Shown here: positions 10,133 through 45,327 of the stretch, piece after piece
Layout: each line of letters starts with the position of its first letter
Position numbering within the stretch: position 1 is the stretch's first letter
Assembly: GCA_947646015.1 (NCBI GenBank)
Contig: CANSEY010000012.1
Span: forward strand, 1 to 64,000
Direction of reading: 5' to 3'
Length of the DNA stretch: 64,000 nucleotides
Source: an uncultured Bacteroides sp.
Lineage (GTDB): Bacteria > Bacteroidota > Bacteroidia > Bacteroidales > Bacteroidaceae
Made by a program: the position numbers and the translations under genes
Notes under the pieces: model-generated
Seen by the model: only the letters and a program-made list of their open reading frames with translations
Told to the model about the DNA's origin: nothing
The model's database searches: none

Positions 10133-10271
10133 TTCTCAAACCATTCTCATCGCAATGAGAAAAAATTCTCACCACAGTGAGAAAAAATACTCATTGCAAT
10201 GAGAAAATATTCTCAAGCCTATGAGAATTAATTCTCACTGTGGTGAGAACTTTTTCTTATTAAAGTGAGTA
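10133..10271. repeat. Array A: six 18-bp palindromes at exact 22-bp spacing
   Basis: Units begin at 10144, 10166, 10188, 10210, 10232 and 10254. Each is TTCTCA, six variable bases, TGAGAA, followed by four mostly A/T bases. The third has one arm change and the sixth two. Unit 2 (TTCTCACCACAGTGAGAA) and unit 5 are exact reverse complements of each other. A lone TTCTCA half-site lies at 10133, one 11-bp step before unit 1. The array fills the gap between two convergent genes. No cas-type genes or unique spacers are present, so it is not CRISPR. Confidence 0.93.
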
Positions 10272-10349
10272 TAATTCTTGTTGTATTCATCATTTATAAG
10301 AAAGCTAATTCATAAAAAGTCAGCTCTCATAAGAACTCTGCCGGCCACA

Positions 10350-11699
10350 TTACTTGTGGAATTTCACTGTGATTTCTGCCGATTGGTTTCCGTAAGTCCA
10401 GTCCGGACCTTCTTGAATCAGACGTATGGCCTCCTTATCCAGAGATTTGCAAAGACTTTCCTTGACTTTAATGTCGAAGGGACGCCCTTCTTTGTTAACA
10501 AAGAAAGTCAAGGTAACCTTGCCTTTGAGTTCTGCGCAAGCGTCGTCCGCAGGGTATGCCAGATTCTTTTTCAGATACTTTTTATATTGCTTCATTCCTG
10601 TTACGGGTTCCGGAATGACAGCCCCCTGTAATGTATCGGTCTTTTGGGAAATATCAGCATCTTTTGATGTTGCTGATTTCTGCAATGCACCCGAAGCTTT
10701 TTTCAAATCTTTGATTGATACGGCAGAAATGGCTCCAGTCACAGCTACCTTTTTCTGTGTGCCATATCCTGTTACTACGACTTCATTAAGTGTTGTTTTA
10801 TTTTCATGCATGGCTATCAGCATAGTCTTACTGGTGTCTGCCGGTATACTAACCGGATTATAGCCAATATAATGTGCAGTTAATATCGCATTACCTTCCT
10901 TTTTGGGCAAGGAGAATTCTCCGTTGATATCCGTTATCGTTCCATAAGTTGTTCCTTTGTAAGTGACGTTAGCTCCGATGAGTGGTTCTCCTTTGTCGTC
11001 CGTCACTTTCCCTTTGATCATGTTGTTCATTTGGGTGGCTAATTGAGCTACTTTCATCTTTTTCCTGTTGGCATCCAGGAAAGAAGTATCTGTAACCGTT
11101 GTGATAGCCGCTTCTTCCAGCTCCTCTGCCGGAGCAACTATTTCTTCCATTATCGGAGTTCCGGCAGGCGTTGCTTTGGGAGCTGTTGCTTTAGAAGCCG
11201 TCGCTTTAGGAACCGTTGCGGAAGTAGCCCTCGAAGGTGTACTTTGGGATGGAGAATCCTGCCTTGTCTTGGCGATTATATCTTTTCCGACCGTTTCCTT
11301 TGTGGCAGAAGGGCGACCGGAATCCGGTTCCATCTTTGGAGCGGATAGGGAAGTGTCTTCTTTGTGAGCAGGAACAGTTGCAGTGGCGGCGGGCTGCTCC
11401 TTAGCTATAAACACATCCTCTCCAACGTTCTGTTTCAGAAACAGGAAGTAACTGCTGATTCCGATTCCTATAATCAGGCAGGCGGCAATGCTCCAGGTGA
11501 CGGCATACGTATTTCTTTTTTTTGCCGAATGGGCGTTTACCTTCATCCGCAATTTATTAATCTGTTCATCGTGGTCCCCTTCTACTTGGTGGTACCCATC
11601 CATCGCGTCAGCCAGAAAAGGGTCTTTCATCGACTCTTTTTCCAGTCGATGTGCCTCTTTTCCTTTGCGGAGTCCTCGTATGTAGTCCAATAGTTTCAT
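10350..11699 (-). CDS. Single-pass membrane protein with CarboxypepD_reg-like and TonB C-terminal domains
   Basis: A 449-residue protein. Residues 1-80 are cytoplasmic and highly charged; one membrane segment follows (SIAACLIIGIGISSYFLFL). A low-complexity Ala/Thr/Pro linker covers about 110-190. A carboxypeptidase-regulatory-like beta domain (IKGKVTDDKGEPLIGANV) starts near 228 and ends in a SusC-style TonB-box segment (VVVTGYGTQKKVAVTG). The C-terminal 85 residues match a TonB C-terminal domain (AYPADDACAELKGKVTLTFFV). It starts in an ATGA overlap with the ECF sigma gene, so the cytoplasmic part may act as its anti-sigma factor; that role is inferred. Confidence 0.85.
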   Translation of the reverse strand: MKLLDYIRGLRKGKEAHRLEKESMKDPFLADAMDGYHQVEGDHDEQINKLRMKVNAHSAKKRNTYAVTWSIAACLIIGIGISSYFLFLKQNVGEDVFIAKEQPAATATVPAHKEDTSLSAPKMEPDSGRPSATKETVGKDIIAKTRQDSPSQSTPSRATSATVPKATASKATAPKATPAGTPIMEEIVAPAEELEEAAITTVTDTSFLDANRKKMKVAQLATQMNNMIKGKVTDDKGEPLIGANVTYKGTTYGTITDINGEFSLPKKEGNAILTAHYIGYNPVSIPADTSKTMLIAMHENKTTLNEVVVTGYGTQKKVAVTGAISAVSIKDLKKASGALQKSATSKDADISQKTDTLQGAVIPEPVTGMKQYKKYLKKNLAYPADDACAELKGKVTLTFFVNKEGRPFDIKVKESLCKSLDKEAIRLIQEGPDWTYGNQSAEITVKFHK

Positions 11700-12265
11700 A
11701 GGGCTTGTTTCTTAATACAAATTTTCAAGTTTCGCTTTCCGTTCTGGATATAGCTTTTCACGTTATTCAGAGTAAATCCGGTTTGTTCGACAATATCCGC
11801 ATACGACATTTCTTCCAGGAAGAAACGTGTAATGCTGGTCCTTTGTTCTTCGGGCAGCTTTTCCAGACAGTGGTGCAATGCTTTCAGCTGCTCTTCCGAA
11901 CTTTCCTCTTCACTTAATAGATGCAGAAATTCATCGGATTCCATAATATTAATGGTATAATCCAGCGGAATTTCTTTGTTTTCCTTTCGTAACAGTTGCA
12001 GGCAATGGTTCTTCGCCACCCGATAGAGCCACGGCTTGAATGCTTTTATCTCATAATTGATTATTTTAGGTAACAGGTCTTCAAACATCTGCATCACCGC
12101 TTCCTGCGCTTGGTCTTCATCTTGCAGATATTTCAGGCAAAGTCCGTACGTCAGCGGGATATAACGGTTGTATAGTTCACCGAAATATTCCGTATCCTCG
12201 GACATTATATAATGGGTCAGTAGTTCCTCGTCCGATAGCTTCGATATGTTTCTTTTAAAGAACAC
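11696..12265 (-). CDS. ECF-type RNA polymerase sigma-70 factor
   Basis: A 189-residue extracytoplasmic-function sigma factor. Region 2 is seen at about residues 22-95 (GELYNRYIPLTYGLCLKYL; AFKPWLYRVAKNHCLQLLR) and region 4 at about 125-180 (LEKLPEEQRTSITRFFLEEMSYADIVEQTGFTLNNVKSYI split over helix-turn-helix positions). It is co-transcribed with the membrane TonB-type protein and divergent from the von Willebrand A gene, its likely target. A TATCTTTG -7 box lies 17 bp before the start. Confidence 0.93.
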   Translation of the reverse strand: MFFKRNISKLSDEELLTHYIMSEDTEYFGELYNRYIPLTYGLCLKYLQDEDQAQEAVMQMFEDLLPKIINYEIKAFKPWLYRVAKNHCLQLLRKENKEIPLDYTINIMESDEFLHLLSEEESSEEQLKALHHCLEKLPEEQRTSITRFFLEEMSYADIVEQTGFTLNNVKSYIQNGKRNLKICIKKQAL

Positions 12266-12281
12266 AGCTTTTTTTTGCAGT

Positions 12282-12289
12282 CAAAGATA
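12282..12289 (-). promoter_or_regulatory. -7 promoter box for the ECF sigma operon
   Basis: TATCTTTG on the minus strand. A GTTG (12310-12313) at 20-bp distance is one base from the TTTG -33 element, so this looks like a housekeeping promoter for the sigma factor. Confidence 0.5.
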
Positions 12290-12428
12290 GGCATAGGAAT
12301 TAAAAATAGCAACGTGTGGAAGAAAAATAAAAAAAACTTCAGTTGGTTTATGGAATCCGTGTGGAATCTGCATCTCTATAGTAAAAGCGGATTAATTGTA
12401 ACATTTTAAAAATTAAAAAGATAAAGTT

Positions 12429-14294: not shown

Positions 14295-14358
14295 TAGTAT
14301 AGGTTAATTAAAAGGGTGATCAGCATAGATCAATGTATGGTTTCGCATTGATTAGTTC

Positions 14359-14442
14359 GTTCCATATACGTTTCCCTTTCGTTCGACCTAGGTGGGACTA
14401 AACGATCACCTGGGTCGAACTAAAAGATAACCTAGGTGGAAC
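14359..14442. repeat. Array B: four palindromes at exact 22-bp spacing
   Basis: Units start at 14359 (degenerate), 14381, 14403 and 14425. The core ACCTAGGT or ACCTGGGT recurs at 14386, 14408 and 14430, and GTTC/GAAC-like arms give the consensus GTTCnACCTAGGTnGAAC. Spacers are TTTC, TAAA and TAAA. TTCGTTCC (14356-14363) and GGAACGAA (14438-14445) are reverse complements at the two edges, so the array can also fold as one long hairpin. It lies between the vWA gene and the tRNA-Trp terminator. The sequence is unrelated to array A but the spacing is identical. Confidence 0.85.
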
Positions 14443-14511
14443 GAATTAGGATTTGCATAAATTTTAAATAGAATCTGCAATGCAATTACTAAGCTATGGA
14501 CTATAAAAGAG

Positions 14512-14544
14512 AAACCGCAGATAATCGACGATTACCTGCGGTTT
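14512..14544 (-). terminator. Terminator of tRNA-Trp
   Basis: AAACCGCAG (14512-14520) pairs with CTGCGGTTT (14536-14544), and an inner TAATC/GATTA adds five pairs. On the minus strand it is followed by a pyrimidine-rich tail (CTCTTTTATAG), eight bases downstream of the tRNA. Confidence 0.75.
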
Positions 14545-14551
14545 ACTTCTG

Positions 14552-14624
14552 CACGGGAGGAGAGGCTCGAACTCCCGACACCCGGTTTTGGAGACCGGTG
14601 CTCTACCAACTGAGCTACTCCCGT
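14552..14624 (-). tRNA. trnW: tRNA-Trp (anticodon CCA)
   Basis: A 73-nt cloverleaf on the minus strand. The acceptor stem is ACGGGAG/CTCCCGT with discriminator G; the D stem is GCTC/GAGC; the anticodon stem is CCGGT/ACCGG with loop CTCCAAA, giving CCA for tryptophan; the T arm has the TTCGAGC loop. The 3' CCA is not encoded. It stands alone rather than in a tRNA cluster. Confidence 0.97.
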
Positions 14625-14689
14625 GTTTGCGGCTGCAAAGGTAGTATAAACTTTCGAACCAGCAAATATTAGGGTAAATAAATTTCCAA

Positions 14690-15060: not shown

Positions 15061-15103
15061 GATTAATACCTAATACTTATTACTTAATACCTATTACCTA
15101 AAT
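15061..15103 (-). repeat. Heptamer repeat array at the end of the glycosylase gene
   Basis: Read on the minus strand, 7-bp units TAATAGG, TATTAAG, TAATAAG, TATTAGG follow in perfect 7-bp register from the TAG stop of the glycosylase gene (15098-15100) to about 15069. Because 7 is not a multiple of 3, the array places stop codons in every frame. Confidence 0.8.
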
Positions 15104-21365: not shown

Positions 21366-22676
21366 ATGAAAACAGATTTGATCTATGGCGTAGAAGACCG
21401 CCCCCCATTTAAAGATGCCCTGTTTGCTGCCTTGCAACATCTGTTGGCTATCTTTGTAGCCATCATTACACCTCCTCTTATCATTGCGAGCGCACTGAAG
21501 CTGGATGTTGAAAAAACAAGCTTTCTGGTATCTATGTCCCTTTTTGCTTCGGGGGTATCTACGTTTATACAATGCCGTCGTATCGGCCCGATAGGAGCGA
21601 AGCTGCTCTGTATCCAAGGTACCAGTTTCTCCTTTATCGGTCCTATCATAGCGACCGGATTAGTAGGCGGACTTCCGTTGATATTCGGCTCCTGTATAGC
21701 TGCCGCACCTATTGAAATGGTCGTCAGCCGTACCTTCAAGTATCTTCGCAATATCATCACCCCGCTAGTGTCCGGCATTGTCGTACTACTGATCGGATTG
21801 AGTCTGATCAAAGTCGGTATCGTTTCCTGTGGCGGCGGATATGGCGCGATGGACGACGGCTCCTTCGGTTCGTGGGAAAATCTGTCCATTGCTGCACTCG
21901 TATTGTTGAGCGTCTTGTTTTTCAATCGCTGCAAAAACAAATACCTGCGCATGAGTTCCATCGTGTTCGGCCTTTGTCTGGGTTATGGATTGGCTTTCGC
22001 CCTGGGAAAAGTAAATATGAGCGCACTAAATGTCGAGATGCTGATGAGTTTCAACATCCCGCAACCTTTTAAATACGGTATTGATTTTAATATCTCTTCA
22101 TTTATCGCCATTGGCCTGGTCTATCTGATCACTGCCATTGAAGCCACAGGTGATGTGACAGCCAACTCCATGATTTCCGGACTTCCGATTGAAGGTGATT
22201 CTTATCTGAAACGTGTTTCCGGCGGTGTGATGGCAGATGGCTTCAACTCTCTTTTAGCAGGTATATTCAACTCCTTCCCGAACTCCATCTTCGCACAGAA
22301 TAACGGTATCATCCAATTAACAGGAGTTGCCAGCCGCTATGTAGGCTATTATATTGCCGCTATGCTCGTTCTGCTGGGATTATTCCCCATTGTAGGAGCT
22401 ATATTCTCTCTGATGCCCGATCCGGTACTGGGAGGCGCCACCTTATTAATGTTCGGTACAGTAGCGGCAGCAGGTATCCGCATCGTTTCCTCACAGGAAA
22501 TAGGCCGCAAAGAAACCCTAGTCTTAGCAGTCAGCCTATCTTTAGGTTTGGGTGTGGAACTAATGCCGGACGTATTAAAACAAGCTCCAGAGGCGATTCG
22601 AAGTATTTTCTCTTCAGGAATCACCACCGGAGGTTTAACTGCAATTGTTGCTAATATGGTAATTAGAGTGAAGTAA
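21366..22676 (+). CDS. NCS2 family nucleobase:cation symporter (xanthine/uracil permease type)
   Basis: A 436-residue inner-membrane transporter with about 14 helices. The opening LQHLLAIFVAIITPPLIIASAL and the QGTSFSFIGP segment are NCS2 hallmarks, and the helix-8 motif ITAIEATGDVTANS carries the conserved glutamate that binds the base; the short NQ-type motif near helix 10 is AQNNGIIQLTG. It imports purine or pyrimidine bases with a cation. The TAA stop is the first unit of a 7-bp repeat array. Confidence 0.92.
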   Translation: MKTDLIYGVEDRPPFKDALFAALQHLLAIFVAIITPPLIIASALKLDVEKTSFLVSMSLFASGVSTFIQCRRIGPIGAKLLCIQGTSFSFIGPIIATGLVGGLPLIFGSCIAAAPIEMVVSRTFKYLRNIITPLVSGIVVLLIGLSLIKVGIVSCGGGYGAMDDGSFGSWENLSIAALVLLSVLFFNRCKNKYLRMSSIVFGLCLGYGLAFALGKVNMSALNVEMLMSFNIPQPFKYGIDFNISSFIAIGLVYLITAIEATGDVTANSMISGLPIEGDSYLKRVSGGVMADGFNSLLAGIFNSFPNSIFAQNNGIIQLTGVASRYVGYYIAAMLVLLGLFPIVGAIFSLMPDPVLGGATLLMFGTVAAAGIRIVSSQEIGRKETLVLAVSLSLGLGVELMPDVLKQAPEAIRSIFSSGITTGGLTAIVANMVIRVK

Positions 22677-22708
22677 TAAGTAATAGGTAATAAGTAATAG
22701 GTATTAAG
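22674..22708 (+). repeat. Heptamer repeat array starting at the permease stop codon
   Basis: Five 7-bp units: TAATAAG, TAATAGG, TAATAAG, TAATAGG, TATTAAG. The first unit supplies the TAA stop. The array pairs with the inverted array at 22739-22772. Confidence 0.85.
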
Positions 22709-22738: not shown

Positions 22739-22772
22739 TTATTACTTATTACCTAATACCTATTACTTATTT
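22739..22772 (-). repeat. Heptamer repeat array overlapping the end of the KamA-type gene
   Basis: On the minus strand the units ATAAG, TAATAGG, TATTAGG, TAATAAG run in 7-bp register. They encode the last residues (ISNRY) and the TAG stop of the KamA-type protein. With 22674-22708 they form an inverted pair of about 34-bp arms around a 30-bp loop, probably acting as a bidirectional terminator. Confidence 0.8.
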
Positions 22773-29200: not shown

Positions 29201-30139
29201 ATGTTAAAAGTAGTAGCATTTATGAAGCAAGTAGCCGAAGAGCTACGGATGGGGGGAAACTTTGGTACGGCGCACGTATATCGCAGCAGCACCAATGCCA
29301 TCATTGCTTATTGTGGGGAAGGGGATTTTTCTTTTGACGAGGTCACCCCGGAGTGGTTGAAAGGTTTCGAGATACACCTTCGTGGGAAGGGATGTAGCTG
29401 GAACACCGTTTCCACTTATCTAAGAACATTTCGTGCGGTGTACAATCGTGCCGTCAACAGTAGGATGGTCGTTTATACGCCCCATCTGTTCCGCTCTGTT
29501 TATACGGGCACGCGTGCGGACCATAAGAGGGCATTGTGTGATGAAGATATGAAGAAGGTATTCACCAGACTGCCTTCATCTTCCGCCATACCTCTTGCCG
29601 TGAGGCGTGCGCAGGACATGTTCGTGCTGATGTTCTTGCTTCGTGGTCTGCCGTTTGTCGATCTCGCTTATCTGCGCAAAAGTGATTTAAGAGATAATGT
29701 GATCATTTACCGCAGGCGGAAGACAGGCCGGCCCTTGTCGGTGACGCTTACTCCGGAAGCGCTCGAACTATTAAAGAAGTATATGAACCGCGACAGCCAT
29801 TCGCCTTATCTCTTTCCGCTGTTGAAAAGCGGAGAGGGAACAAAGGAGGCTTACCGGGAATATCAGTTGGCATTGCGCAGCTTCAACCAGCAGCTCACGC
29901 TCTTGGGGAAGGTATTGGGACTGAACGATAGACTGAGTTCATACACCGCCCGCCATACATGGGCTACAACAGCCTATTATTGCGAAATTCACCCGGGTAT
30001 TATCTCCGAAGCTATGGGGCACTCGTCCATCAAGGTGACCGAGACTTATCTAAAACCTTTCCGTAATAAGAAAATTGATGAGGCTAATAATCAGATTATT
30101 GATTTTGTAAAACATTCAATAGCTGGAGTAGTAGCTTGA
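29201..30139 (+). CDS. Tyrosine recombinase, likely inverting the adjacent promoter
   Basis: A 312-residue integrase-family enzyme. A SAM-like N-terminal domain covers about 1-105. Catalytic landmarks are Arg in FLLRGLPFVDL, Lys in RRRKTGRPL, SYTARHTWAT and GHSSIKVTETYL with the nucleophilic tyrosine near residue 285. The usual HxxR histidine is a tyrosine here, which is common in Bacteroides relatives. Its stop is 10 bp from the left inverted repeat of a 302-bp invertible segment, so it probably catalyses that inversion. The start at 29201 was taken as the first ATG in frame. Confidence 0.92.
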   Translation: MLKVVAFMKQVAEELRMGGNFGTAHVYRSSTNAIIAYCGEGDFSFDEVTPEWLKGFEIHLRGKGCSWNTVSTYLRTFRAVYNRAVNSRMVVYTPHLFRSVYTGTRADHKRALCDEDMKKVFTRLPSSSAIPLAVRRAQDMFVLMFLLRGLPFVDLAYLRKSDLRDNVIIYRRRKTGRPLSVTLTPEALELLKKYMNRDSHSPYLFPLLKSGEGTKEAYREYQLALRSFNQQLTLLGKVLGLNDRLSSYTARHTWATTAYYCEIHPGIISEAMGHSSIKVTETYLKPFRNKKIDEANNQIIDFVKHSIAGVVA

Positions 30140-30149: not shown

Positions 30150-30451
30150 GTTACTTTCTAGGTAACGGAGCTAAATAGCGTTGCAAAGATGGATATATTT
30201 TGGAAAACATGCAAACAAAAAAGATATTTTTTCTGATAAACTACTAAAAAAAGAGAAATAATACGATAAAACAACGGATTTCTTTCTGTTAGGGACCTGT
30301 TAACCTCTGATCAAGATACAAAGAATTTCCTCCCCTCTGCCGCATGTCTGAAGCAGGGGTAAATATGTTTCACTGTAAAATAGTCCGGTTTTTCATATAG
30401 ATAGCTCCACAGGAGTCAGGACAAAGGTTTACCCGTTACCTAGAAAGTAAC
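30150..30451. promoter_or_regulatory. Invertible promoter segment (apparently OFF for the surface protein)
   Basis: Perfect 19-bp inverted repeats, CCGTTACCTAGAAAGTAAC at 30433-30451 and its reverse complement at 30150-30168, flank 264 bp. Inside, the only good promoter reads leftward (see 30184-30215), away from the surface protein gene. Inversion would point it at 30633. This is the standard layout of phase-variable promoters in Bacteroides. Confidence 0.88.
30184..30215 (-). promoter_or_regulatory. Promoter inside the invertible segment, facing left
   Basis: On the minus strand TTTG (30212-30215), 20 bp, then CATCTTTG (30184-30191), seven of eight bases of TAnnTTTG. Transcription would start about 10 bp inside the left repeat and run into the recombinase 3' end. 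No comparable rightward promoter was found in the segment. Confidence 0.65.
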
Positions 30452-30632: not shown

Positions 30633-33600
30633 ATGAACAAAAAGTTTTTAAATGCTGTCCTGTTTGGAGCGCTGATAGCGTCCTCGGCAGGTACATTTAC
30701 TTCTTGTAAAGACTACGATGACGACATCAAGAGTCTGCAGGAACAAATTGACAAAAGCGGAAGCACCGTTGGCGATCTTCAGACTCAGCTGACAACGCTG
30801 AAGAGTGCTGCAGAAGCTGCACAGGCTGCTGCTGATGCTGCAAAGACAGCTGCTGCAGAAGCTAAGACTGCCGCAGAAGCTGCAAAAACTGCCGGCGACC
30901 AGGCTGCTGCCGATGCTGCTACAGCGAAAGCGCTGGCAGAAGAAGCGAAAGCTGCCGCTGCGCAAGCAAAAGCAGATGCGATAGCGGAAGCCGCAACACA
31001 GGTTGAAGCATTGAGAAATTCAATGCAGGCTGCTATTGACAACAAACTGGATGTGACAGTACACGAAGCTGCTGTAAAAGCACTCGGTGCTCAGATTGAA
31101 GGTATAGAAACAGGTTTGAGCAATCTTGCTAACGGAGCAGTGAAAGAAAATACTGAAGCGATCAAAAATGCTCAGGATGCTATCGAAACGTTGATTACAG
31201 CAGATAAAGACTTGCAGACTCAGCTCGACGCTTTGAAACTTTATGCAGAAGGTGTAAAAGATATAGCTGACGCTAACAAGGAAGATATCGCGGCAGCGCA
31301 GGAAGCTATTGAAGCTGCACAGGATGAGATTAAGAAACTTTGGGATGAAATCAACGGTGAAGGCGGTCTGAAAGCTTTGATCGGTGAGAATAAATCTGCC
31401 ATTGAAGCGCTGAAGAACTCTACAGCTCAGGATATTGCTGACCTCGAAGATAAGATCAACGATGAGCTGGATGCTATCAAATCGGATATCTCAGGTATTC
31501 AGGGTGACATCAGAACCATCAACAGCCAGATTATTACTATCAACGCTGACTTGGTGAGCCTGCACACTTTAATGACTTGCCGTCTGACAAGCATCACGTT
31601 TGCTCCCGACTATATCGTAGACGGTGTGGAAGCGATCAAGTTCAACTCATTGAAATATGCTCCGATGGGAAGCGGTGAAAATGCTGCTATTCCTACGAAT
31701 TATAGTATTTCTACAGCTGCTTTGGCAACTGCAAGCTACCACTTCAACCCAGCTAGCTTCAAGTTGGGCAATGCTGACTATAGCTACTTGGATCGTAGCG
31801 CTACAGTGATCAACACTCGCGCGGCTGCCAGCCAGTGGGTTCAGATCAGCGGTACTCCGGTTGCTAACGCTGCAACAGGAACAGTGGACTTCAAACTGCT
31901 TCGTCTTAACGTTCATTCTACTCAGCCGGCAGAAGATAAAGTAAACATGGTTGCTTTGCAGGCTACTCTGAAGGGTGATGCTGTAGACAAAGACGAGACT
32001 AACGTAGTGGTTACTTCTCCGTATGTATCTATCTATGATGACGTACTGGCTGAACCGGACGTTCGCATCTCTGACAAAGCTACTTTAGTTTCAGGTGCTG
32101 ACGGTGCTCATTATGCAACTACTTTCACTGCTTGTAAGTCAGAAGCTGTTCGCTATACAACTCCTTACGATCAAGTATTCAACCTGAAAGACCTGGTGGC
32201 TACTTGCTTCGGTAACGGTAATCACAAAGAATTCCCGATCGAAGACTATAAGTTGTCATATAAGTTCTCTGTAGCTTCTTCTGATTACAACATCACTGAA
32301 GGTGAAACTTCAACCAACCAGCAGAAATGGGTGGTATGTAACGACGCTGCGGCAGGTTTGTACCAGGCAGAAGGCTTCAATAAAGAAGCGATCGGTCGTA
32401 CTCCTATCCTGAAAGTGGAATTGGTAGACGAAGCAGGCAATGTAGTACGTCGCGGATTCGTGAAGATCGAATTTGGTGTGACGAAGCAAGATGACCTCGT
32501 AGTAGGTGACAAGGCTTATGACTTGGTAGCTAAATGTACTGAAACAGCTGCTGAATACACTATCACAGAGCAATTCATCCGTGAAAATGTTTACCGCGTT
32601 ATTACTAACGGTAAGGAAACAAGCATGAGCCACGAAGAATTCTGGAACTTGTATGATGCTTCCGGTGCTGTTGCTGTAGTGAAGAAGAACAACCTGTCAC
32701 ACACTATGACTCTGCCGAGAATCGTTGACGGTGATACTTCAGTAGGTACTGCTACGAAGAAGATCGTTTGGTCATTCAATCATGGTGAACTGGGTAAGAT
32801 CGGTGCCGGTGGTTCTCAATTTGTTGCAACTGTAACAGTGAAGAACAAGCTGACTTCTTCTGAATATCCTGCAAGCATCACATTCAAGTTCACAGTAAAC
32901 GTGAAGTTGCCTGAACTTACTTTGGATGCTACTGAAAATGATATTTACTGGACGAAAGATGGTGATGAGTACAAGTACTTCAATGTAAATGTGAGTGTAC
33001 CTAACTCAGTTGCTTCTCCTGCAAGTGATTGCCAGTTCAGAAGAGCATTGACAGAAGCTTACTCTGCTTACACTGTGAAAGGACTTCCGGGTTGCGAATC
33101 TGCTCGTTACAAAGTAATCAAGACTTACTCTAACGGTAACTTGACTTCTCCTGTAATGTCTGGTGTTCAGATCGACGGTAACTATATCACCCTGGATAAG
33201 AGCAATGCTGCTGTGAAGGCTGCGTTGAACAGCGCAAACGGTCTGCAAGCTGTCGTTGCACACATCTACACGATGAGCAATGGCGACGAAGTGACTGTTA
33301 ACGAATTTATGGTTGACTTTATCCGTCCTGTTAACTTGAACATGCCGAGCGGTATTGCAGTAATAGACGCTAAGACTGGCGGTGATGTTGCTGACTTCCA
33401 ATGGAATGGTCTGTTGACTGACTGGAGAAACGAAGCAATTGTAAAAGATAGCTGGTCATGGGTTGAAAATGTTCATTCTTACTGGAAGAGAGTTTGTACT
33501 CCTGAATTCGAATATGTTCAAGGTCACGAAGAAATGGTTACACCGGCTCAGTTGGATGTAGAATATGGTACGATTAAGTTTACTACCACTACTGTGACTA

Positions 33601-34253
33601 CTATGTATACAGGTAAGGCTACTTATAGATACTATAACAGATTGGGTGGATCTACTAAGAAGACTTACACAACTGAAGAGTTCTTGACTCAGGCAGAAGT
33701 TGACGCTTCTCTTGAAGCACAGAAATTAGCTGGATGGCCGTTGATATATCCACATGTTGAATTAGATGGCGATATTATATATACGGAAGTTTCTAAACCT
33801 GCAAGCACTACTATTGAGTACGACTATGTGAAGAGTATCAACTATGTACCGGCAACTTACAAGTGGGTTGAAGGTAACTGGACAATGGTTCCTCACAGAC
33901 ACACTGAAAAGCCTGCATTCGAAGGAACATCTTACGGACAGATCTCAGGATGTTGGGAATGGACGAAGAAAGAGTGGGGCAGACCGGATTGGAATCCTGG
34001 ACAATACTGGTTCTTCTATGGTCCGTTCGGCGATGTAACACTGGATTTGAACAAAGTAACTACAAGCTTGGAATACAACGGTAACAAGTTGCCTGATGGC
34101 GCTACTTTGGTTCAGACTGGTAACACTGTGAAGTATGTGAATGTTAGCTCACCAGTTGGATATACTTATCAGATATTCATTCCTGCTACAGTAAATTACG
34201 GCTGGGGAACTACTTCTTCTACATTGACTATTACAGTTAATCCGAATAACTAA
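30633..34253 (+). CDS. Phase-variable surface (S-layer-like) lipoprotein with coiled-coil N-terminus
   Basis: A 1206-residue lipoprotein: lipobox TFTSC with Cys25, then KDYDDDI. Residues about 30-290 form a long alanine-rich coiled coil (AAEAKTAAEAAKTAG and similar), and the rest is a beta-rich body. Codon use is strongly biased, as for very abundant proteins. Lipid-anchored coiled coil plus recombinase and invertible promoter resembles the phase-variable surface-layer protein BT1927 described in B. thetaiotaomicron; homology to it is my recollection, not a search result. It is followed by an OmpA-family gene. In the sequenced orientation it should be mostly silent. Confidence 0.85.
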   Translation: MNKKFLNAVLFGALIASSAGTFTSCKDYDDDIKSLQEQIDKSGSTVGDLQTQLTTLKSAAEAAQAAADAAKTAAAEAKTAAEAAKTAGDQAAADAATAKALAEEAKAAAAQAKADAIAEAATQVEALRNSMQAAIDNKLDVTVHEAAVKALGAQIEGIETGLSNLANGAVKENTEAIKNAQDAIETLITADKDLQTQLDALKLYAEGVKDIADANKEDIAAAQEAIEAAQDEIKKLWDEINGEGGLKALIGENKSAIEALKNSTAQDIADLEDKINDELDAIKSDISGIQGDIRTINSQIITINADLVSLHTLMTCRLTSITFAPDYIVDGVEAIKFNSLKYAPMGSGENAAIPTNYSISTAALATASYHFNPASFKLGNADYSYLDRSATVINTRAAASQWVQISGTPVANAATGTVDFKLLRLNVHSTQPAEDKVNMVALQATLKGDAVDKDETNVVVTSPYVSIYDDVLAEPDVRISDKATLVSGADGAHYATTFTACKSEAVRYTTPYDQVFNLKDLVATCFGNGNHKEFPIEDYKLSYKFSVASSDYNITEGETSTNQQKWVVCNDAAAGLYQAEGFNKEAIGRTPILKVELVDEAGNVVRRGFVKIEFGVTKQDDLVVGDKAYDLVAKCTETAAEYTITEQFIRENVYRVITNGKETSMSHEEFWNLYDASGAVAVVKKNNLSHTMTLPRIVDGDTSVGTATKKIVWSFNHGELGKIGAGGSQFVATVTVKNKLTSSEYPASITFKFTVNVKLPELTLDATENDIYWTKDGDEYKYFNVNVSVPNSVASPASDCQFRRALTEAYSAYTVKGLPGCESARYKVIKTYSNGNLTSPVMSGVQIDGNYITLDKSNAAVKAALNSANGLQAVVAHIYTMSNGDEVTVNEFMVDFIRPVNLNMPSGIAVIDAKTGGDVADFQWNGLLTDWRNEAIVKDSWSWVENVHSYWKRVCTPEFEYVQGHEEMVTPAQLDVEYGTIKFTTTTVTTMYTGKATYRYYNRLGGSTKKTYTTEEFLTQAEVDASLEAQKLAGWPLIYPHVELDGDIIYTEVSKPASTTIEYDYVKSINYVPATYKWVEGNWTMVPHRHTEKPAFEGTSYGQISGCWEWTKKEWGRPDWNPGQYWFFYGPFGDVTLDLNKVTTSLEYNGNKLPDGATLVQTGNTVKYVNVSSPVGYTYQIFIPATVNYGWGTTSSTLTITVNPNN

Positions 34254-37944: not shown

Positions 37945-37946
37945 GC

Positions 37947-39201: not shown

Positions 39202-40080
39202 TTATTGTACGCTCTCTTTATTTTCGTTTTCTGAAGTCGGATTCAGATCGTGTCCGCAATACTTGCAGAACTGCGCATTGTCTTCATGCCCTGACCGATG
39301 GCAGTTCGGACATTCTTTGTCTCTTCTCCGTTTATATTCCTTCATCATGGAGGCGGACACAATACCGGTAGGTACCGCAATGATAGTGTAACCAATCAGC
39401 ATGACGCAAGCCGAAAGAAATTTTCCCAGTCCGGTGACAGGAGTTATATCTCCGTATCCTACGGTGGTCATTGTGACAATAGCCCAGTAGATACTGTTCG
39501 GAATGTTGTTGAACTGAGAATTGGGCAAAGTTCCTTCGATCATATACATTAACGTCCCGATGGAAGTAACCAAAATCACAACAAAAAGAAAGAAGACCGC
39601 AATCTTTTTACTACTTTCCCGAAGTGCGGTGAGCAGTCGTTCGCCTTCATTCAAGAAATTGAATAGCTTAAAGACACGGAATACCCGTATCAATCGAAAT
39701 GCACGGATGATAAGCAGATAGCGTGCTCCCGGAAAGATCAAACCGATGTAAAGCGGCAAGGTAGCCAACAGGTCAACAATGCCGAAGAAACTGAATATGT
39801 ATTTCTTCGGGCGTGGAGAGCAATATATTCGTGTCAGATACTCAAAGGTAAAGAAAGCAGTGAAAAGGTACTCCATTATGACAAATGGGGTAGTCAGATA
39901 GGAGGGGAGCCCTTTCAGGCTTTCTATAATGACTAATAATACACTGGCAAGGATACAGCCGATAAGAACCACATCAAACAGCTTTCCCGAAGGAGTGTCT
40001 GACTCGAAGATGATGACGTACAGCTTATGTTTCAGCTTTTGGTCATTCAGAAAATGATGGATTCTTTCTTTTAGTTTCAT
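39202..40080 (-). CDS. Voltage-gated-type potassium channel with C-terminal zinc ribbon
   Basis: A 292-residue ion transporter with six membrane helices. S4 carries spaced arginines (IIRAFRLIRVFRVFKL), and the pore has the potassium selectivity filter TVGYGD. The C-terminus has two CxxC pairs (CPNC and CKYC), a small zinc-ribbon-like element. It would conduct potassium across the inner membrane. A heptamer array separates it from the transglycosylase gene. Confidence 0.92.
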   Translation of the reverse strand: MKLKERIHHFLNDQKLKHKLYVIIFESDTPSGKLFDVVLIGCILASVLLVIIESLKGLPSYLTTPFVIMEYLFTAFFTFEYLTRIYCSPRPKKYIFSFFGIVDLLATLPLYIGLIFPGARYLLIIRAFRLIRVFRVFKLFNFLNEGERLLTALRESSKKIAVFFLFVVILVTSIGTLMYMIEGTLPNSQFNNIPNSIYWAIVTMTTVGYGDITPVTGLGKFLSACVMLIGYTIIAVPTGIVSASMMKEYKRRRDKECPNCHRSGHEDNAQFCKYCGHDLNPTSENENKESVQ

Positions 40081-40126
40081 GAGAATAATCAGTTAACAGG
40101 CCAATATCCCAATAACCTGTATTTTA

Positions 40127-40168
40127 CCTATTACTTATTACCTGCTACTTATTACCTATTACATTAAT
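40127..40168 (-). repeat. Heptamer repeat array at the stop codon of the transglycosylase gene
   Basis: On the minus strand the units TAATAGG, TAATAAG, TAGCAGG, TAATAAG, TAATAGG (40161 down to 40127) are in perfect 7-bp register and begin two bases after the TAA stop (40164-40166). Confidence 0.85.
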
Positions 40169-41165: not shown

Positions 41166-41176
41166 TTGATTGGTTC

Positions 41177-42016
41177 TTATTCCAATATCTGGCAACCACG
41201 GCAGTAATAGATGCTACCGCCAAGATAATTCTCCTTGACAATGGTTTCTCCGCAACGGGGACAGGCTTTGCCTGCCGTGTCTTTAGAGAGGCAAGCTGTG
41301 TACTTGCCGTTCTCTCCAAACAGGTCCGATTCCGTGTTTCGTCCACCCTGCCGGTAGATATCGTTCATGGTCTCCTTTACTTGATAGAACAAATTTTCTT
41401 TCTCTTTGTCCGTTAATGCTGCTATTTTTTTCTTCGGATGGATGTGGGCATGATACAGAATGTCCTGTAATACACCGTTTCCCAGTCCCGGAACAGTCTG
41501 TTCTGTAGCCAGAAAGGCTTTGGCGGACTTCTTCTGCGCACTTTCATCATTAATCAGTCCGAGGAAATATTCTTTGCTGAAAGCGTCCGACATGACCTGC
41601 GGCTTGCTTTTCGCTGTCCGGTAATATTCGGAAAGTACGCCGTTGGCGGCGTCCTTGCTGTAACACATGATTCCTCCATACATGCGCACGGAAGCGATAA
41701 GGCAGCTTTCGTCTTCAAAGCCGATCAGGAGTTGATGTTTGGCAGGCAGTTTCGTTCCGGGTGCGTAATACCGGAGATTTACTCCGTCCGTAAGTATCAG
41801 CATTTTGTCGCCTATTGTCATCTCTACCATGCCTCCTTGTGAACGTGCGTGGTCTATTGACTTTCCGGTCAGCCATTCGGCATACTCGTCGGGACTTCCG
41901 GAAAACCAAGCGAATTTGTGAGGAGTGAACAGGGTGAATACATTTGTGATTCGTTTTCCCTTGACAGTCTTGTTCAGTTGCTCGCATAGATAGAGCGCTT
42001 CGGGTGCCTCAATCAT
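41177..42016 (-). CDS. Fpg/Nei family DNA glycosylase-like protein lacking the catalytic proline
   Basis: A 279-residue protein with the Fpg/Nei layout: N-terminal MIEAPEA in place of MPELPEV, a lysine hairpin (GDKMLIL), a helix-two-turns-helix (VPGLGNGVLQDILYHAHIHPKKK, split) and a C-terminal zinc finger (CPRCG and CRGC). Glu3 and the hairpin lysine are kept. The catalytic Pro2 is Ile, and the zinc-finger arginine usually five residues before the third cysteine is Gly. It may be a structural or diverged repair protein. A TATCTTTG -7 box lies upstream. Confidence 0.83.
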   Translation of the reverse strand: MIEAPEALYLCEQLNKTVKGKRITNVFTLFTPHKFAWFSGSPDEYAEWLTGKSIDHARSQGGMVEMTIGDKMLILTDGVNLRYYAPGTKLPAKHQLLIGFEDESCLIASVRMYGGIMCYSKDAANGVLSEYYRTAKSKPQVMSDAFSKEYFLGLINDESAQKKSAKAFLATEQTVPGLGNGVLQDILYHAHIHPKKKIAALTDKEKENLFYQVKETMNDIYRQGGRNTESDLFGENGKYTACLSKDTAGKACPRCGETIVKENYLGGSIYYCRGCQILE

Positions 42017-42053
42017 GTTCTTTCTTTTTTATGGTTCTATAAATGTTCTCTTG

Positions 42054-42061
42054 CAAAGATA
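42054..42061 (-). promoter_or_regulatory. -7 promoter box for the Fpg-like gene
   Basis: TATCTTTG on the minus strand, with a predicted leader of about 33 nt. Confidence 0.5.
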
Positions 42062-42168
42062 ATGCTTATTAATCAGAATAGCCCTAATTCGGCAGAACAA
42101 AATACATCCGTTTACCGGAGTGTCACTTTCTTCTGAGATGTTGAGAGACGTTATCCGGCATGCTAATA

Positions 42169-42276
42169 CTGCGCCTTGCTTTTACACACTTGTGCCAACA
42201 GCTTGTCACACTTGTGCCAAAGGCTTGGCACGGCTGTGCCACCGCATTGGCACAACTGTGCCACAATGTTGGCACA
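42169..42276. repeat. Array C: four 20-bp palindromes at exact 22-bp spacing
   Basis: Units start at 42191, 42213, 42235 and 42257. Each is TGTGCCA, six variable bases, TGGCACA (for example TGTGCCACCGCATTGGCACA), with 2-bp spacers; the first and second have one arm change each. A decayed copy precedes them (TGCGCC at 42170, TTACACA at 42182-42188). The array lies between divergent genes. Its geometry is that of arrays A and B but its sequence is unrelated. Confidence 0.93.
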
Positions 42277-42412
42277 AGCATACCTCCGTAGGGGGCAGAG
42301 TTTATCAATATATATAACAACTGCAATGAAATAGTTTATTTTACTTTTTTCAAAGAACCTTTTCTGCTTTTGATACGTTTCTCTAGTATAGTTAAAAAAA
42401 CGAAGAATCAAG

Positions 42413-43726
42413 ATGAATATAGCAATGACCGGAGCCACCGGATATATAGGCAAACATCTTTCTAACTATCTGACCGAAAAGGGTGGACATCGGATCATTC
42501 CTTTGGGAAGAGCGATGTTTCGGGAAGGTATGTCCGGACTTTTGGTTCAGACGCTGACGCATTGCGATGTCATTATAAATCTGGCAGGCGCTCCTATCAA
42601 TCAGCGCTGGACGCCGGAACATAAACAACAGCTTTTCAATAGCCGGATAACGGTAACACACCGCATTATCCGTGCCTTGAATGCAGTCAAAACCAAACCG
42701 AAACTTATGATTTCGGCCTCTGCTGTAGGATATTACCCCTCTTTGGTGGAATCGGACGAGTATACACAGACTCGTGGCGATGGTTTTCTGTCCGATCTTT
42801 GTTATGCGTGGGAGAAGGAAGCGAAGCGTTGTCCGCAACCGACCAGGCTTGTCATTACCCGTTTCGGTGTAGTGCTTTCTCCCGATGGGGGAGCGATGCA
42901 ACAGATGCTTCGCCCGCTACGCGCAACAAAGGTTGCCGCCGTCATAGGGCCGGGTACGCAACCTTTTCCGTGGATAGATATTCGTGACCTTTGTCGTGCC
43001 ATGGCCTTCTTTATTGAAAATGAAGAGTTGAGAGGTGTTTTCAATTTGGTTGCTCCTCAAGCAGTTTCACAGTCCACGTTTACACGTGCGATGGGAAAGG
43101 CGTATCATGCGTGGACAACTTTGATTGTTCCGCAAACGGTCTTTCGTTTGCTCTACGGTGAAGCCGCCTCTTTTCTGACAGCCGGACAGAGTGTGCGTCC
43201 TACACGTTTGCTGGAAGCCGGATTCCATTTTTCCGTTCCTACCATAGAGAAGTTGTTTGAGGAGACAGATCACAGTACGGTAGATCGGCTTGATCTGAAA
43301 CGCTATATGGGGCTTTGGTACGAGATAGCCCGTTATGATCATCGTTTCGAACGTGGGCTTATGGAAGTGACCGCTACTTATACCCTCCGTTCCGATGGAA
43401 CAATTCGTGTTGAGAATCGGGGATATAAACGCAATTCCCCTTACGATATTTGTAAAACAGCCACTGGACACGCCAAGATTCCCGACCCTGCACAGCCCGG
43501 TAAACTGAAAGTCTCTTTTTTCTTGAATTTCTATTCCGATTATTATGTGATGGAATTGGATCAGGAGAATTACAATTATGCTCTTATAGGCAGCAGTACC
43601 GATAAATATCTCTGGATATTGAGTCGGACGCCCCAACTGCCGGAAGATATAAAAAAGAAATTAGTAACTGCCGCCGAACGTCGTGGCTATGATACGAATC
43701 GGCTACAATGGATTGAACAACTTTAA
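42413..43726 (+). CDS. TIGR01777-type SDR epimerase fused to a lipocalin
   Basis: A 437-residue two-domain protein. Residues 1 to about 285 are a YfcH/SulA-like NAD-dependent epimerase-type domain (MTGATGYIGKHL; NLAGAPINQRWTPEHKQ; SASAVGYYP). Residues about 290-437 are a bacterial lipocalin (Blc type) with the GLWYEIARYDHRFERG motif and the ALIGSSTDKYLWILSR strand. Normal lipocalins of this type are separate outer-membrane lipoproteins; here there is no signal peptide, so the domain is cytoplasmic. The GNAT gene follows by 10 bp. Confidence 0.92.
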   Translation: MNIAMTGATGYIGKHLSNYLTEKGGHRIIPLGRAMFREGMSGLLVQTLTHCDVIINLAGAPINQRWTPEHKQQLFNSRITVTHRIIRALNAVKTKPKLMISASAVGYYPSLVESDEYTQTRGDGFLSDLCYAWEKEAKRCPQPTRLVITRFGVVLSPDGGAMQQMLRPLRATKVAAVIGPGTQPFPWIDIRDLCRAMAFFIENEELRGVFNLVAPQAVSQSTFTRAMGKAYHAWTTLIVPQTVFRLLYGEAASFLTAGQSVRPTRLLEAGFHFSVPTIEKLFEETDHSTVDRLDLKRYMGLWYEIARYDHRFERGLMEVTATYTLRSDGTIRVENRGYKRNSPYDICKTATGHAKIPDPAQPGKLKVSFFLNFYSDYYVMELDQENYNYALIGSSTDKYLWILSRTPQLPEDIKKKLVTAAERRGYDTNRLQWIEQL

Positions 43727-43736
43727 AATAAACATT

Positions 43737-44009
43737 ATGGATTACAAAATTACTCATCAGCCCGAACAGAAACTATTCAAGACGGAAGTCGACGGTCGTA
43801 CCGCATTTGTAGAATATCGCCTGTTAGGTGATTATCTTGATATTATTCACACGATTGTCCCTAAACCGATAGAAGGATGCGGAATTGCTGCCGCACTGGT
43901 GAAAGCTGCTTACGACTTTGCACTCGCCAACGGGATGAAACCGAAAGCTACCTGCTCCTATGCAGTGAGGTGGCTTGAACGCCATCCGGAAATGAATGCG
44001 GATAGTTGA
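43737..44009 (+). CDS. GNAT-like N-acetyltransferase (YjdJ type)
   Basis: A 90-residue protein with the short Gcn5-related fold: an IHTIVPKPIEGCGIAAALVKAAYDFA segment (split at the acetyl-CoA loop EGCGIA) and a final CSYAVRWLERHPE. These small proteins acetylate unknown amines. The start at 43737 (MDYKITHQPEQ) lies 10 bp after the SDR-lipocalin stop; an in-frame earlier ATG lies inside that gene. Confidence 0.86.
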   Translation: MDYKITHQPEQKLFKTEVDGRTAFVEYRLLGDYLDIIHTIVPKPIEGCGIAAALVKAAYDFALANGMKPKATCSYAVRWLERHPEMNADS

Positions 44010-44016
44010 ATAAATA

Positions 44017-44113
44017 GGGGCTGACCTAAAAGCACGAAAAGTCATTTTCTCTTTGCTGTAATGGATATTTGTGACAAAGATACGTTTGGAAGAAGAACTT
44101 TCGGGTCAGTCCC
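44017..44113. terminator. Long-loop hairpin between convergent genes
   Basis: GGGGCTGACCT (44017-44027) pairs with GGGTCAGTCCC (44103-44113), with two G-T wobbles, across a 75-nt loop, followed by TTTTTAG. It may terminate the GNAT gene on the plus strand. The large loop is unusual for a terminator. Confidence 0.5.
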
Positions 44114-44121
44114 TTTTTAGC

Positions 44122-44391
44122 CTATTGTTTCCATCTCTTTAGTTGAGGGAAGAACTCTTTCATCGTTGCCCGCGCCTCTTCTATAGTGTACTTTACTTCC
44201 GAATCCTTATTAAACTCCTCAAGGTAGTTCAGGTTGAGCTCAATCATTTCATCCATTGTGCATTCTTTGGTAAAATGCCCGTCTGCATAGCAATACTGGC
44301 AATACTCTTCATTCTTGCTGCCGTCTGCTTCTGTTCCGAATGTCGTTTCATCAATTGGCATAGCACAACACTGACAAATTTTCTGTTCCAT
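44122..44391 (-). CDS. Small zinc-ribbon protein
   Basis: An 89-residue protein with two cysteine clusters: CQCCAMP near residue 6 and CQYCYADG near residue 31, giving a treble-clef zinc ribbon. The rest is a charged helical tail (MDEMIELNLNYLEEFNKDSEV). It matches the putative zinc ribbon family PF12674. Function unknown. A box TATATTTG (minus strand, 44449-44456) lies 58 bp before the start. Confidence 0.85.
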   Translation of the reverse strand: MEQKICQCCAMPIDETTFGTEADGSKNEEYCQYCYADGHFTKECTMDEMIELNLNYLEEFNKDSEVKYTIEEARATMKEFFPQLKRWKQ

Positions 44392-44491
44392 TTTTTATTG
44401 ATTTTAAGTGAGTAAAAGCATGATAAATAATTCTCTTTTATCTGTTTACAAATATAGTTACTTTCAATAAGTTCTCAGTTATCCGATCTTG

Positions 44492-45223
44492 CTATTTTGT
44501 TTTTACCGGCAAACGTTTCCATATCCATCGGGGAATCATTCGCCAGAAGAATACGAGAATACGATAACGTCCGTCAATGATAGCTACCCGCTGTTTCCGA
44601 TGAAGTGCGCGTACAATGTCGCGGCCTACCTGGTCGGTTTTCATCAGCATAGGATAATGCTTTCCGTCATTCAGCAAGTCAGTGGCTACAAATCCCGGAC
44701 GAATATCGGTAAAGTGAATGTTTAACTTTTGCAGGTGGGCGAGTTGTTCAAGAGCATCGATGTATGTATTCTGAAAGCGCTTCGTTGCAGAATAGGCAGG
44801 GGCAACTCCCAGACCTTTAGTTCCGGCAATCGAACTGATGACAGCCAGGTGTCCGCCTCCATTGTTCTTAAAATAGGAAAAAGCGGTATCCACCATTCGT
44901 GTGAAGCCTTCGACATTGGTACGTGCGGTATTCAGCTCGATTTCCATCTTCAAATCCATATTTTGGAAACCGATGCCGGAACTGAGCAGAAATAAATCCA
45001 TACCGCCCAATTGATGGATAAGCGCATCCAGCTTTCCGGCACTGTCTTCCTGAGTGACGTCCAGTGATTGAATTTTTATCTGTTCCGGTGCGATTTGCCG
45101 GAAATCTTCGAGAGCTGACTGGCGTCTGCCCGCTATGCCGATCTGCCATCCTTCGGACAGGAGGCGTTGGGCAACTTCCTTTCCGATACCGGAGGTGGCG
45201 CCTATGATAATGGCTCGTTTCAT
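44492..45223 (-). CDS. Short-chain dehydrogenase/reductase
   Basis: A 243-residue classical SDR. The cofactor motif is IGATSGIGKEV near residue 8; a NAG-like turn appears as LLSSGIG; the catalytic set is Ser in ISSIAG, Tyr and Lys in YSATKRF. It would oxidise or reduce an alcohol or ketone with NAD(P); substrate unknown. The start at 45223 places the Rossmann motif at the N-terminus. A longer ORF to 45319 reads through repeat array D and was not accepted. Confidence 0.9.
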   Translation of the reverse strand: MKRAIIIGATSGIGKEVAQRLLSEGWQIGIAGRRQSALEDFRQIAPEQIKIQSLDVTQEDSAGKLDALIHQLGGMDLFLLSSGIGFQNMDLKMEIELNTARTNVEGFTRMVDTAFSYFKNNGGGHLAVISSIAGTKGLGVAPAYSATKRFQNTYIDALEQLAHLQKLNIHFTDIRPGFVATDLLNDGKHYPMLMKTDQVGRDIVRALHRKQRVAIIDGRYRILVFFWRMIPRWIWKRLPVKTK

Positions 45224-45233
45224 CTTTTTGGAA

Positions 45234-45241
45234 CAAAGATA
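45234..45241 (-). promoter_or_regulatory. -7 promoter box for the SDR gene
   Basis: TATCTTTG on the minus strand, ten bases before the ATG. Array D begins eight bases upstream of it. Confidence 0.5.
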
Positions 45242-45248
45242 GTCAAAT

Positions 45249-45327
45249 CTTTCTATTTTGAAAGGAGAACTTTCCATTTTGAAAGCCATCCTTTTCGTTT
45301 TGACAGGAAACCTTTTCATTTTGGTAG
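45249..45327. repeat. Array D: four imperfect palindromes at 21-bp spacing
   Basis: Units start at 45249, 45270, 45291 and 45312: CTTTC or CTTTT, then a six-base centre (TATTTT, CATTTT, CGTTTT, CATTTT), then GAAAG, GAAAG, GACAG, GGTAG. The first two are perfect inverted repeats; the others are decayed. It sits just upstream of the SDR -7 box. Spacing is 21 rather than 22, but the six-base centre is shared with arrays A and C. Confidence 0.65.

What the first reader, a model, noticed from the sequence alone, without database searches (positions are those of the whole stretch)
10133..45327. A family of arrays with shared geometry but private sequence: candidate undescribed repeat system
Three clear arrays and one weak one in 64 kb share period (22, 22, 22, 21), palindromic units and, in A, C and D, a six-base centre, but have four unrelated arm sequences. 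Within an array arms are alike, so copies arise locally by a mechanism that fixes length. Options: tandem slippage of a 22-bp unit under selection for palindromes, a family of paralogous binding proteins each with its own site, or a templated process such as a tyrosine-recombinase or transposon-tail device. I know of no named repeat family that fits.
Basis: inference. Interest (0 to 1): 0.9.

Follow-up and report, generated by a model that had tools for sequence, protein, structure and literature searches.

The report
Palindrome arrays paired with DNA-binding proteins
Bacteroides genomes carry many short arrays of about four palindromes spaced 22 bases apart, and several of these array families appear to be matched with members of an unstudied family of small, probably DNA-binding proteins whose genes end in the same kind of array, which points to a previously undescribed set of protein-and-repeat pairs.

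Summary
In 1.6 Mb of the window's genome an arm-blind scan finds 33 strict arrays, 30 of period 22 and 3 of 23, none in three shuffles. Arms are not private: A and C recur at three or more other loci. Arrays prefer convergent intergenic DNA and gene 3' ends. Class C leads to DUF6078, an uncharacterised ~144-aa family: 49 of 71 DUF6078 loci have a strict 22/23-bp array within 500 bp downstream, none upstream; control genes 37 of 1145. Arm class follows the protein tree; genomes with the class C protein hold about 20 times more class C matches; one residue at the start of the putative recognition helix separates GTGCCA from TTGCCA arrays in all 24 clear cases. I read arrays A and C as tandem operators of XRE-like DUF6078 proteins, partly spread as satellites; binding and function are inferred. 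Arrays B and D, and 9 arrays in 400 kb of a genome without DUF6078, have no known partner. The papers searched do not describe this.

The parts
10133..10271 (.). Array A: direct half-site TTCTCA at 10133, then six palindromic units TTCTCA-N6-TGAGAA at 10144, 10166, 10188, 10210, 10232, 10254 (period 22); between convergent genes 8930-10102 (+, DUF418) and 10350-11699 (-, TonB_C and carboxypeptidase-regulatory-like domains)
   Evidence: same class at C4:110022, C6:89940, C5:23831 and next to a DUF6078 gene in G001 (L285)
14381..14442 (.). Array B (weak): about 2.6 units around ACCTAGGT with GTTCG/GAAC half-sites, period 22; lies about 110 bp 3' of the tRNA gene at 14552-14624 (-)
   Evidence: one other copy, C14:74463; not in the strict lists; no protein partner found
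42191..42276 (.). Array C: four units TGTGCCA-N6-TGGCACA at 42191, 42213, 42235, 42257 (period 22), between the divergent genes 41177-42016 (-) and 42413-43726 (+)
   Evidence: same class at C6:18457, C23:59641, C15:62922 and after DUF6078 genes of the class C orthogroup
45249..45327 (.). Array D (weak): four units CTTTC-N6-GAAAG of period 21, the last two degenerate; overlaps the 5' end of the called frame 44492-45319 (-), a short-chain dehydrogenase whose best Pfam match begins only at residue 34
   Evidence: single copy in the genome; orthologous in G001; membership doubtful

Best explanation
Arrays A and C are tandem operator arrays for small DNA-binding proteins of the DUF6078 family. Shown: in 49 of 71 cases a DUF6078 gene is followed by an array of palindromic units, often about four, of period 22 (sometimes 23), with arms typical of its subfamily, and arrays with the same arms lie scattered in the same genomes with a preference for gene 3' ends and convergent intergenic DNA. 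Shown: arms of unrelated sequence occupy the same footprint, about 4-9 bp from the dyad, with the central 6 bp free. Inferred: a DUF6078 dimer, with an N-terminal cysteine cluster (probably metal-binding) and a C-terminal XRE/Cro-like helix-turn-helix, sits on each palindrome; 22 bp is about two helical turns, so neighbouring dimers lie on one face of the DNA and can bind cooperatively, which would select period and unit number whatever the arm sequence. Inferred: units are gained and lost by 22-bp steps, gene-plus-array modules occasionally move, and arrays alone spread as satellites of the gene. Least certain: the function at gene ends. My guess is a protein roadblock that separates convergent transcription units, with part of the spread simply selfish.
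Confidence: 0.66

Rival explanations
1. REP-RAYT-like mobile system: DUF6078 is the enzyme, or part of one, that copies the arrays, which are its non-autonomous satellites; recognition of arms serves mobility, not regulation.
For: Gene adjacent to its repeat; repeat dispersed in trans and tied to presence of the gene; class A elements share both ends across loci and species, judged by eye; gene-plus-array modules in unrelated flanks; some arrays present in one species and absent at the same place in a relative, and the array A locus is a synteny breakpoint in G001; GTTTC arrays together with a second palindromic element at several loci.
Against: No nuclease, HUH or transposase match for DUF6078 in Pfam, PHROGs or NCBIfam; no Y1_Tnp in the own, incomplete genome; class C arrays show no conserved ends beyond the arms; no target-site duplication demonstrated.
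Confidence: 0.18
2. Ordinary transcription factors: each DUF6078 is a repressor or activator with a regulon of operator arrays, and the array behind its own gene is an autoregulatory site.
For: HTH-like domain and cognate palindromes; some arrays lie in divergent promoter regions (array C; 9 of 75 arrays).
Against: 0 of 71 DUF6078 genes have a 22/23-bp array upstream; 36 of 75 arrays are convergent and 9 divergent; some array positions are not conserved between near species, although others are.
Confidence: 0.1
3. The arrays act as RNA: rows of hairpins in 3' UTRs that end transcription or stabilise mRNA, with DUF6078 as an RNA-binding protein or bystander.
For: 3'-end preference; class A units are flanked by A/T runs that look like two-way terminators; loops are complementary within class C arrays more often than by chance (22 pairs against a permutation mean of 8.4, maximum 16).
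Against: Direct similarity of loops is raised just as much (25 against 8.7, maximum 17), so local copying explains both; arms keep their sequence rather than covary; the centre length found by the scan varies from 2 to 9 between arrays while the period does not, and the footprint is shared, which RNA hairpins would not need; Rfam finds nothing in the arrays.
Confidence: 0.1
4. Neutral minisatellites: tandem slippage of chance palindromes.
For: 22-bp and 44-bp copy-number differences between relatives.
Confidence: 0.03

Closest known systems
REP elements with RAYT transposases (GTAG/CGTC REP families, REPINs)
   Same: Short extragenic palindromes, dispersed, with a dedicated protein family encoded beside its own repeat class (partly recalled; passages of PMC3733652 seen)
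   Different: No Y1 transposase match in the own, incomplete genome; tandem 22-bp register with about four units and a free 6-bp centre; partner is a small HTH-like protein; array found only on the 3' side of the gene
BrickBuilt minisatellite/MITE of Porphyromonas gingivalis (PMC4596501)
   Same: Bacteroidales, intergenic tandem repeat of similar period (23 nt), 19 dispersed loci, inside inverted-repeat elements
   Different: One repeat family with leader, tail and terminal repeats like those of ISPg elements, 1 to 22.8 copies; the word 'palindrom' does not occur in the main text; no partner protein in what I read
Multi-operator arrays of XRE/lambda-type repressors and C-proteins
   Same: Palindromic sites with contacted outer half-sites and a free centre, neighbouring sites about two helical turns apart, HTH dimers (recalled)
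   Different: Those operators sit at their promoter (recalled); here the array is behind the gene and copies are spread over the genome in many classes
BOX elements of streptococci (recalled, not tested)
   Same: Modular dispersed intergenic elements with a variable number of central units
   Different: As recalled, no shared 22-bp palindromic register across unrelated sequences and no cognate protein

Membership tests
DUF6078 (PF19555) partner gene | Match to the Pfam profile in the gene next to the array | tested here: met
   All 8 members of A1 and all 27 of A2 match PF19555; the member printed in full scores 151.4 and 160.6 bits against a cut-off of 27
REP-RAYT system | Y1 (HUH) transposase encoded in the genome | tested here: not met
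   PF01797: no match in the own genome, 5 of 14 control genomes ring; the own genome is only 74.7% complete, other genomes were not searched
REP-RAYT system | GTAG or CGTC tag beside each palindrome | not tested
   Not scanned for
BrickBuilt | Tandem core between leader and tail with terminal inverted repeats | tested here: not met
   No inverted repeats at E 0.01 or better within 700 bp on either side of arrays A and C; a few arrays elsewhere have them. The BrickBuilt sequence itself was not compared
XRE/lambda-type HTH protein | Helix-turn-helix fold | tested here: inconclusive
XRE/lambda-type HTH protein | Sequence-specific DNA binding | not testable with these tools
   Only indirect: residue-arm covariation
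CRISPR array | Repeats of 24-48 bp separated by even-sized unique spacers (as in PMC3733652) | tested here: not met
   22-bp units with 6-bp variable centres
Tyrosine-recombinase core sites | Fixed crossover region between conserved arms, cognate integrase alongside | tested here: inconclusive
   A 6-bp centre fits A and C, other arrays have other centre lengths; one integrase family near 3 of 91 arrays

The most novel reading that the evidence does not exclude
Bacteroidales carry a whole repertoire of orthogonal protein-array pairs: paralogous HTH proteins (DUF6078, and other families still unknown for arrays such as TGTACA in G088) each ending in, and acting in trans on, its own class of four-site 22-bp arrays planted behind other genes, forming a genome-wide protein-dependent boundary or termination layer between transcription units, whose specificity drifts by single recognition-helix residues together with the arms.
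Probability: 0.3. Interest if true: 0.92.

Novelty: new variant of a known kind. Interest (0 to 1): 0.8.

Why it matters
It gives a first testable role to DUF6078, a Pfam family of unknown function found in 126 of 158 genomes of this genus, and turns dozens of intergenic repeats per genome (33 strict arrays in a third of this one) into candidate binding sites, some with a predicted partner. If the pairs hold, they are a natural set of orthogonal protein-operator pairs in a major gut genus, with a one-residue specificity switch ready for a bench test, and they raise an old question in a new place: whether dispersed extragenic palindromes are selfish satellites or a chromosome-organising layer.

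Tried and rejected
RAYT/Y1 transposase as partner: no match in the own genome. Arrays as parts of inverted-repeat elements: true for a few (C4:170957, G1C38:120702, G1C41:101979, perhaps others), not seen for most. Conserved ends as transposon termini: present by eye in class A, absent in class C. Loop-loop pairing as an RNA structure: complementarity is above chance, but so is direct identity, so copying explains it. Other recurrent neighbours of arrays looked like common families (named by eye from the sequences, not by a profile search). A DUF4248 gene lies near one AATAGAGGCTCT array of G001; a single case, not pursued. DUF6078 in viral contigs: two stretches matched a pattern, none confirmed. 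PDB sequence search: nothing relevant. Foldseek: no match at E below 1, although XRE regulators recur in the list.

Selection and dropped rows. The 71 DUF6078 loci are the intact own-genome hit, the loci returned, and 40 fetched roughly in the order of the table, leaving out hits near contig starts and some others without a fixed rule, before their flanks were seen; that table is itself capped. Five of the 71 were not usable as proteins: four mis-called frames (L237, L289, L301, L306; misses in the 49 of 71) and L298 (frame called at 100 aa, array of period 33; also a miss). The control genes were scored with a slightly more lenient rule (periods 21-23, 20 bp tolerance). The orthogroup cut at 50% identity was set by me at a visible gap (50 to 44%). 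Arm labels were assigned by a motif count that I wrote after seeing the arrays; L249 and L288 are near ties. The dyad choice favours low conservation at the centre by construction; the fall-off beyond 9 bp is not built in. Several DUF6078-linked arrays there were given the other dyad by the script. L159, an Acidimicrobiia record, was dropped as a likely chance match.
Full report
What was given. The window is contig C12 of an unnamed, 74.7% complete genome of 4.9 Mb. A close relative, G001, has two contigs of the same lengths as Bacteroides faecis MAJ27 records (531,973 and 376,612), so this is a Bacteroides. In my scripts 'G1C41' counts from base 40001 of G001's contig C41.

The observation. 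Arrays A and C are clean. A: six units TTCTCA-N6-TGAGAA from 10144 to 10271, the last with two mismatches, with an extra direct half-site at 10133. C: four units TGTGCCA-N6-TGGCACA from 42191 to 42276. B and D are weaker and absent from the strict lists. B has one other copy. D has none, but is present in G001 at the same place.

The arms are not private. BLAST in the own genome finds class C at C6:18457, C23:59641 and C15:62922 and class A at C4:110022, C6:89940 and C5:23831, with a weaker match at C4:55605.

Period 22 is genome-wide. I took 1.613 Mb of the genome (and the window) and scanned for three tandem palindromes with seven-base arms of any sequence, centre 2-10 and period 15-40. Of 24 arrays, 21 had period 22, two 23 and one 21; three dinucleotide shuffles gave none. 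With six-base arms there were 33 arrays, 30 of period 22 and 3 of period 23, shuffles 0, 0, 0. Loosening the thresholds brought in other periods in the real sequence (53 arrays, 36 of period 22) and hits in shuffles (7, 2, 3; none of period 21-23). About ten arm classes are visible by eye.

Where they lie. Over 91 arrays (own genome, G001 and loci of the class C scan), 75 had a called gene on both sides. 36 of 75 are convergent, against 17% of intergenic DNA; 9 are divergent, against 24%. The median distance to the nearest stop codon is 63.5 bp, and 16 of 66 lie within 25 bp of one. Sixteen arrays were set aside: 11 at an edge, 5 inside a called gene. Genes were called by a simple reading-frame script.

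How they change. Between the own genome and G001, one GTTTC-type array differs by exactly one 22-bp unit. A second pair, L323 and L324, differs by exactly two units. At one locus shared with G001 the centre of a single unit has been replaced wholesale (L010 and L219). One G001 array changes arm class in mid-array in the same 22-bp register. Among 43 class C arrays of three or more units, judged not to be copies of each other, 29 have four units, nine have three and five have five (two-unit arrays were not counted).

The partner gene. Clustering the proteins encoded within 4 kb of arrays showed one small family near 11 of 91 arrays with a median identity of 55%. It is DUF6078, PF19555. In Parabacteroides distasonis and several Bacteroides the class C array follows the DUF6078 stop codon closely; in two of the 12 matches (C12, G1C41) the nearest array is 2.4 kb or more away. 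In the own genome there is one intact DUF6078, at C12:79390-79818 outside the window, and a C-terminal remnant, below the curated cut-off, 14 bp from the class A array at C4:110032. In G001 the same place holds a DUF6078 with a class A array behind it (L219, L285). DUF6078 occurs in 126 of 158 genomes of the genus.

The association test. At 71 DUF6078 loci I looked 500 bp downstream and upstream with the strict scan. A 22- or 23-bp array lies downstream in 49 of 71 (52 with any period) and upstream in none (one of period 33); of 1145 other genes, 37 have an array downstream and 21 upstream (Fisher p 2e-46, without regard to relatedness). Of 66 usable proteins, reduced to under 90, 70 and 50% identity, the counts are 39 of 53, 28 of 35 and 9 of 11, none upstream. 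Of the 17 usable loci without a strict array, several carry a second type of palindromic element (by eye); the sequence downstream of the own genome's DUF6078 recurs beside GTTTC arrays.

Arms follow the protein. Labelled by arm class, 49 proteins need 9 changes for 7 classes on the DUF6078 tree, with 6 the least possible; shuffles average 27.9 and none of 200 is as low. GCCA, TTAC, TGCA and TTCCC classes need one change each, GTTTC five, the three TCTC proteins three and the two GTTTT proteins two.

Relation in trans. The class C protein (50% identity or more to L290) is in 36 genomes. 30 of them have GTGCCA array matches, against 19 of the other 122; the mean number of matches is 20.8 against 1.07. 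Matches are counted on both strands, several per array, and include the array behind the gene. Six of the 36 have none: G032, G527, G513, G092, G516 and G028; the arrays behind their genes carry TTGCCA arms (L321, L326, L331, L300, L335, L329). On the other side, G021 (22), G044 (11), G079 (10) and the incomplete own genome (23) have matches without the class C protein, and G528, G085 and G529 have matches without any DUF6078 match. Of 30 orthogroup loci, 27 have a strict P22 array downstream.

A residue that goes with a base. Among 32 class C proteins I compared those whose arrays are clearly GTGCCA (15) with those clearly TTGCCA (9); eight were mixed or empty and left out. One alignment column separates them completely: the residue before RTYYR is R in all 15, and Q in eight and E in one of the nine. 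In L150 this is residue 99, the first of the predicted helix 99-106. One of the excluded proteins, L279, has G there and mostly CTGCCA arms; four others with R have equal numbers of G and T. On the tree both traits change three times together, but only once on well-supported branches, so this is a strong hint, not a statistical proof. That arginine prefers guanine and glutamine adenine in such helices is recalled general knowledge.

A shared footprint. Folding 82 arrays of period 22 onto their dyads, whatever the class and including four from the DUF6078-less G088, conservation is 0.84-0.87 at 5-9 bp from the dyad, 0.76 at 4, 0.73 at 10, 0.66 at 11 and 0.55-0.60 at 1-3. The choice between the two dyads favours a free centre by construction; the fall beyond 9 bp is not built in. 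Unrelated arms thus sit at one place relative to the dyad, as expected if related proteins read different bases with one architecture, each dimer covering about two turns.

Mobility. Two identical class C proteins in G057 and G087 share 611 bp, the gene from about 15 bp before its start to the end of the array, and nothing else within the 1.5 kb held on either side. In G001 the neighbourhood of array A is broken, and both broken ends carry copies of an inverted-repeat element. No target-site duplication was shown.

Against the reading. G088, a single contig, 99% complete and without a DUF6078 match, has 9 arrays of period 22 or 23 in 400 kb, with TGTACA-type and CCCGGGTGTA-type arms. Either other protein families serve these arrays, or their partners were lost. 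B, D and several classes of the own genome have no partner either. The DUF6078 claim therefore covers A and C and the further classes found at DUF6078 loci (GTTTC, GTTTT, TTAC, TGCA, TTCCC), not the whole phenomenon.

Literature. A search for DUF6078 gave no paper; searches for Bacteroides with palindromic repeats, 22-bp tandem repeats, REP elements or tandem inverted repeats gave nothing whose listing describes these arrays (listings read, those papers not opened except PMC3733652). Of BrickBuilt (PMC4596501) I read the abstract and outline, one section and passages; of PMC3733652 passages. The library holds open-licence papers only, so absence there is weak evidence.

Verdict. A real, widespread and apparently undescribed array system; for several classes, with good evidence of pairing with DUF6078 proteins; binding, cooperativity and function inferred.

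Noticed in passing
window 30150-30166 and 30435-30451: Inverted repeat GTTACTTTCTAGGTAAC flanks about 270 bp between a tyrosine recombinase gene (29201-30139 +) and a 1206-aa ORF (30633-34253 +): looks like an invertible promoter.
   Followed up: partly
window 15063-15101, 22671-22708, 22739-22771, 40124-40162: Heptamer arrays (TTATTAC / TAATACC type) near gene boundaries, another repeat family with its own period of 7.
   Followed up: no
L235, L238-L240, L243-L245, L250 (downstream of DUF6078): A second kind of palindromic element with direct and inverted copies of one word (e.g. GTTGCAGAT) follows one DUF6078 subgroup; sequence like that behind the own genome's DUF6078 recurs beside GTTTC arrays at C4:5, C6:58814 and C12:76887.
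   Followed up: partly
L337-L356 (G088, 400 kb): A genome without a DUF6078 match carries period-22 TGTACA-type and period-23 CCCGGGTGTA-type arrays: partners unknown.
   Followed up: partly
L206 about 2280-2500 and L134 about 1380-2250 (G001): A MITE-like element with about 120-bp inverted repeats (97.5% alike) carries a hybrid TGTGCCA/GTTTCCA array in one 22-bp register; copies of its end lie at both sides of the break at the array A locus.
   Followed up: partly
L132 about 19421 (G001, G1C41:79421): A DUF4248 gene of 98 aa ends about 200 bp before an AATAGAGGCTCT-type array; possible partner of another class, single case.
   Followed up: no
L010 (own genome) and L219 (G001): At a class A array shared by both genomes the centre of unit 2 differs completely (TTGCGA against CCACAG), and the CCACAG unit is identical to unit 2 of array A, as if units were exchanged between dispersed arrays.
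   Followed up: no
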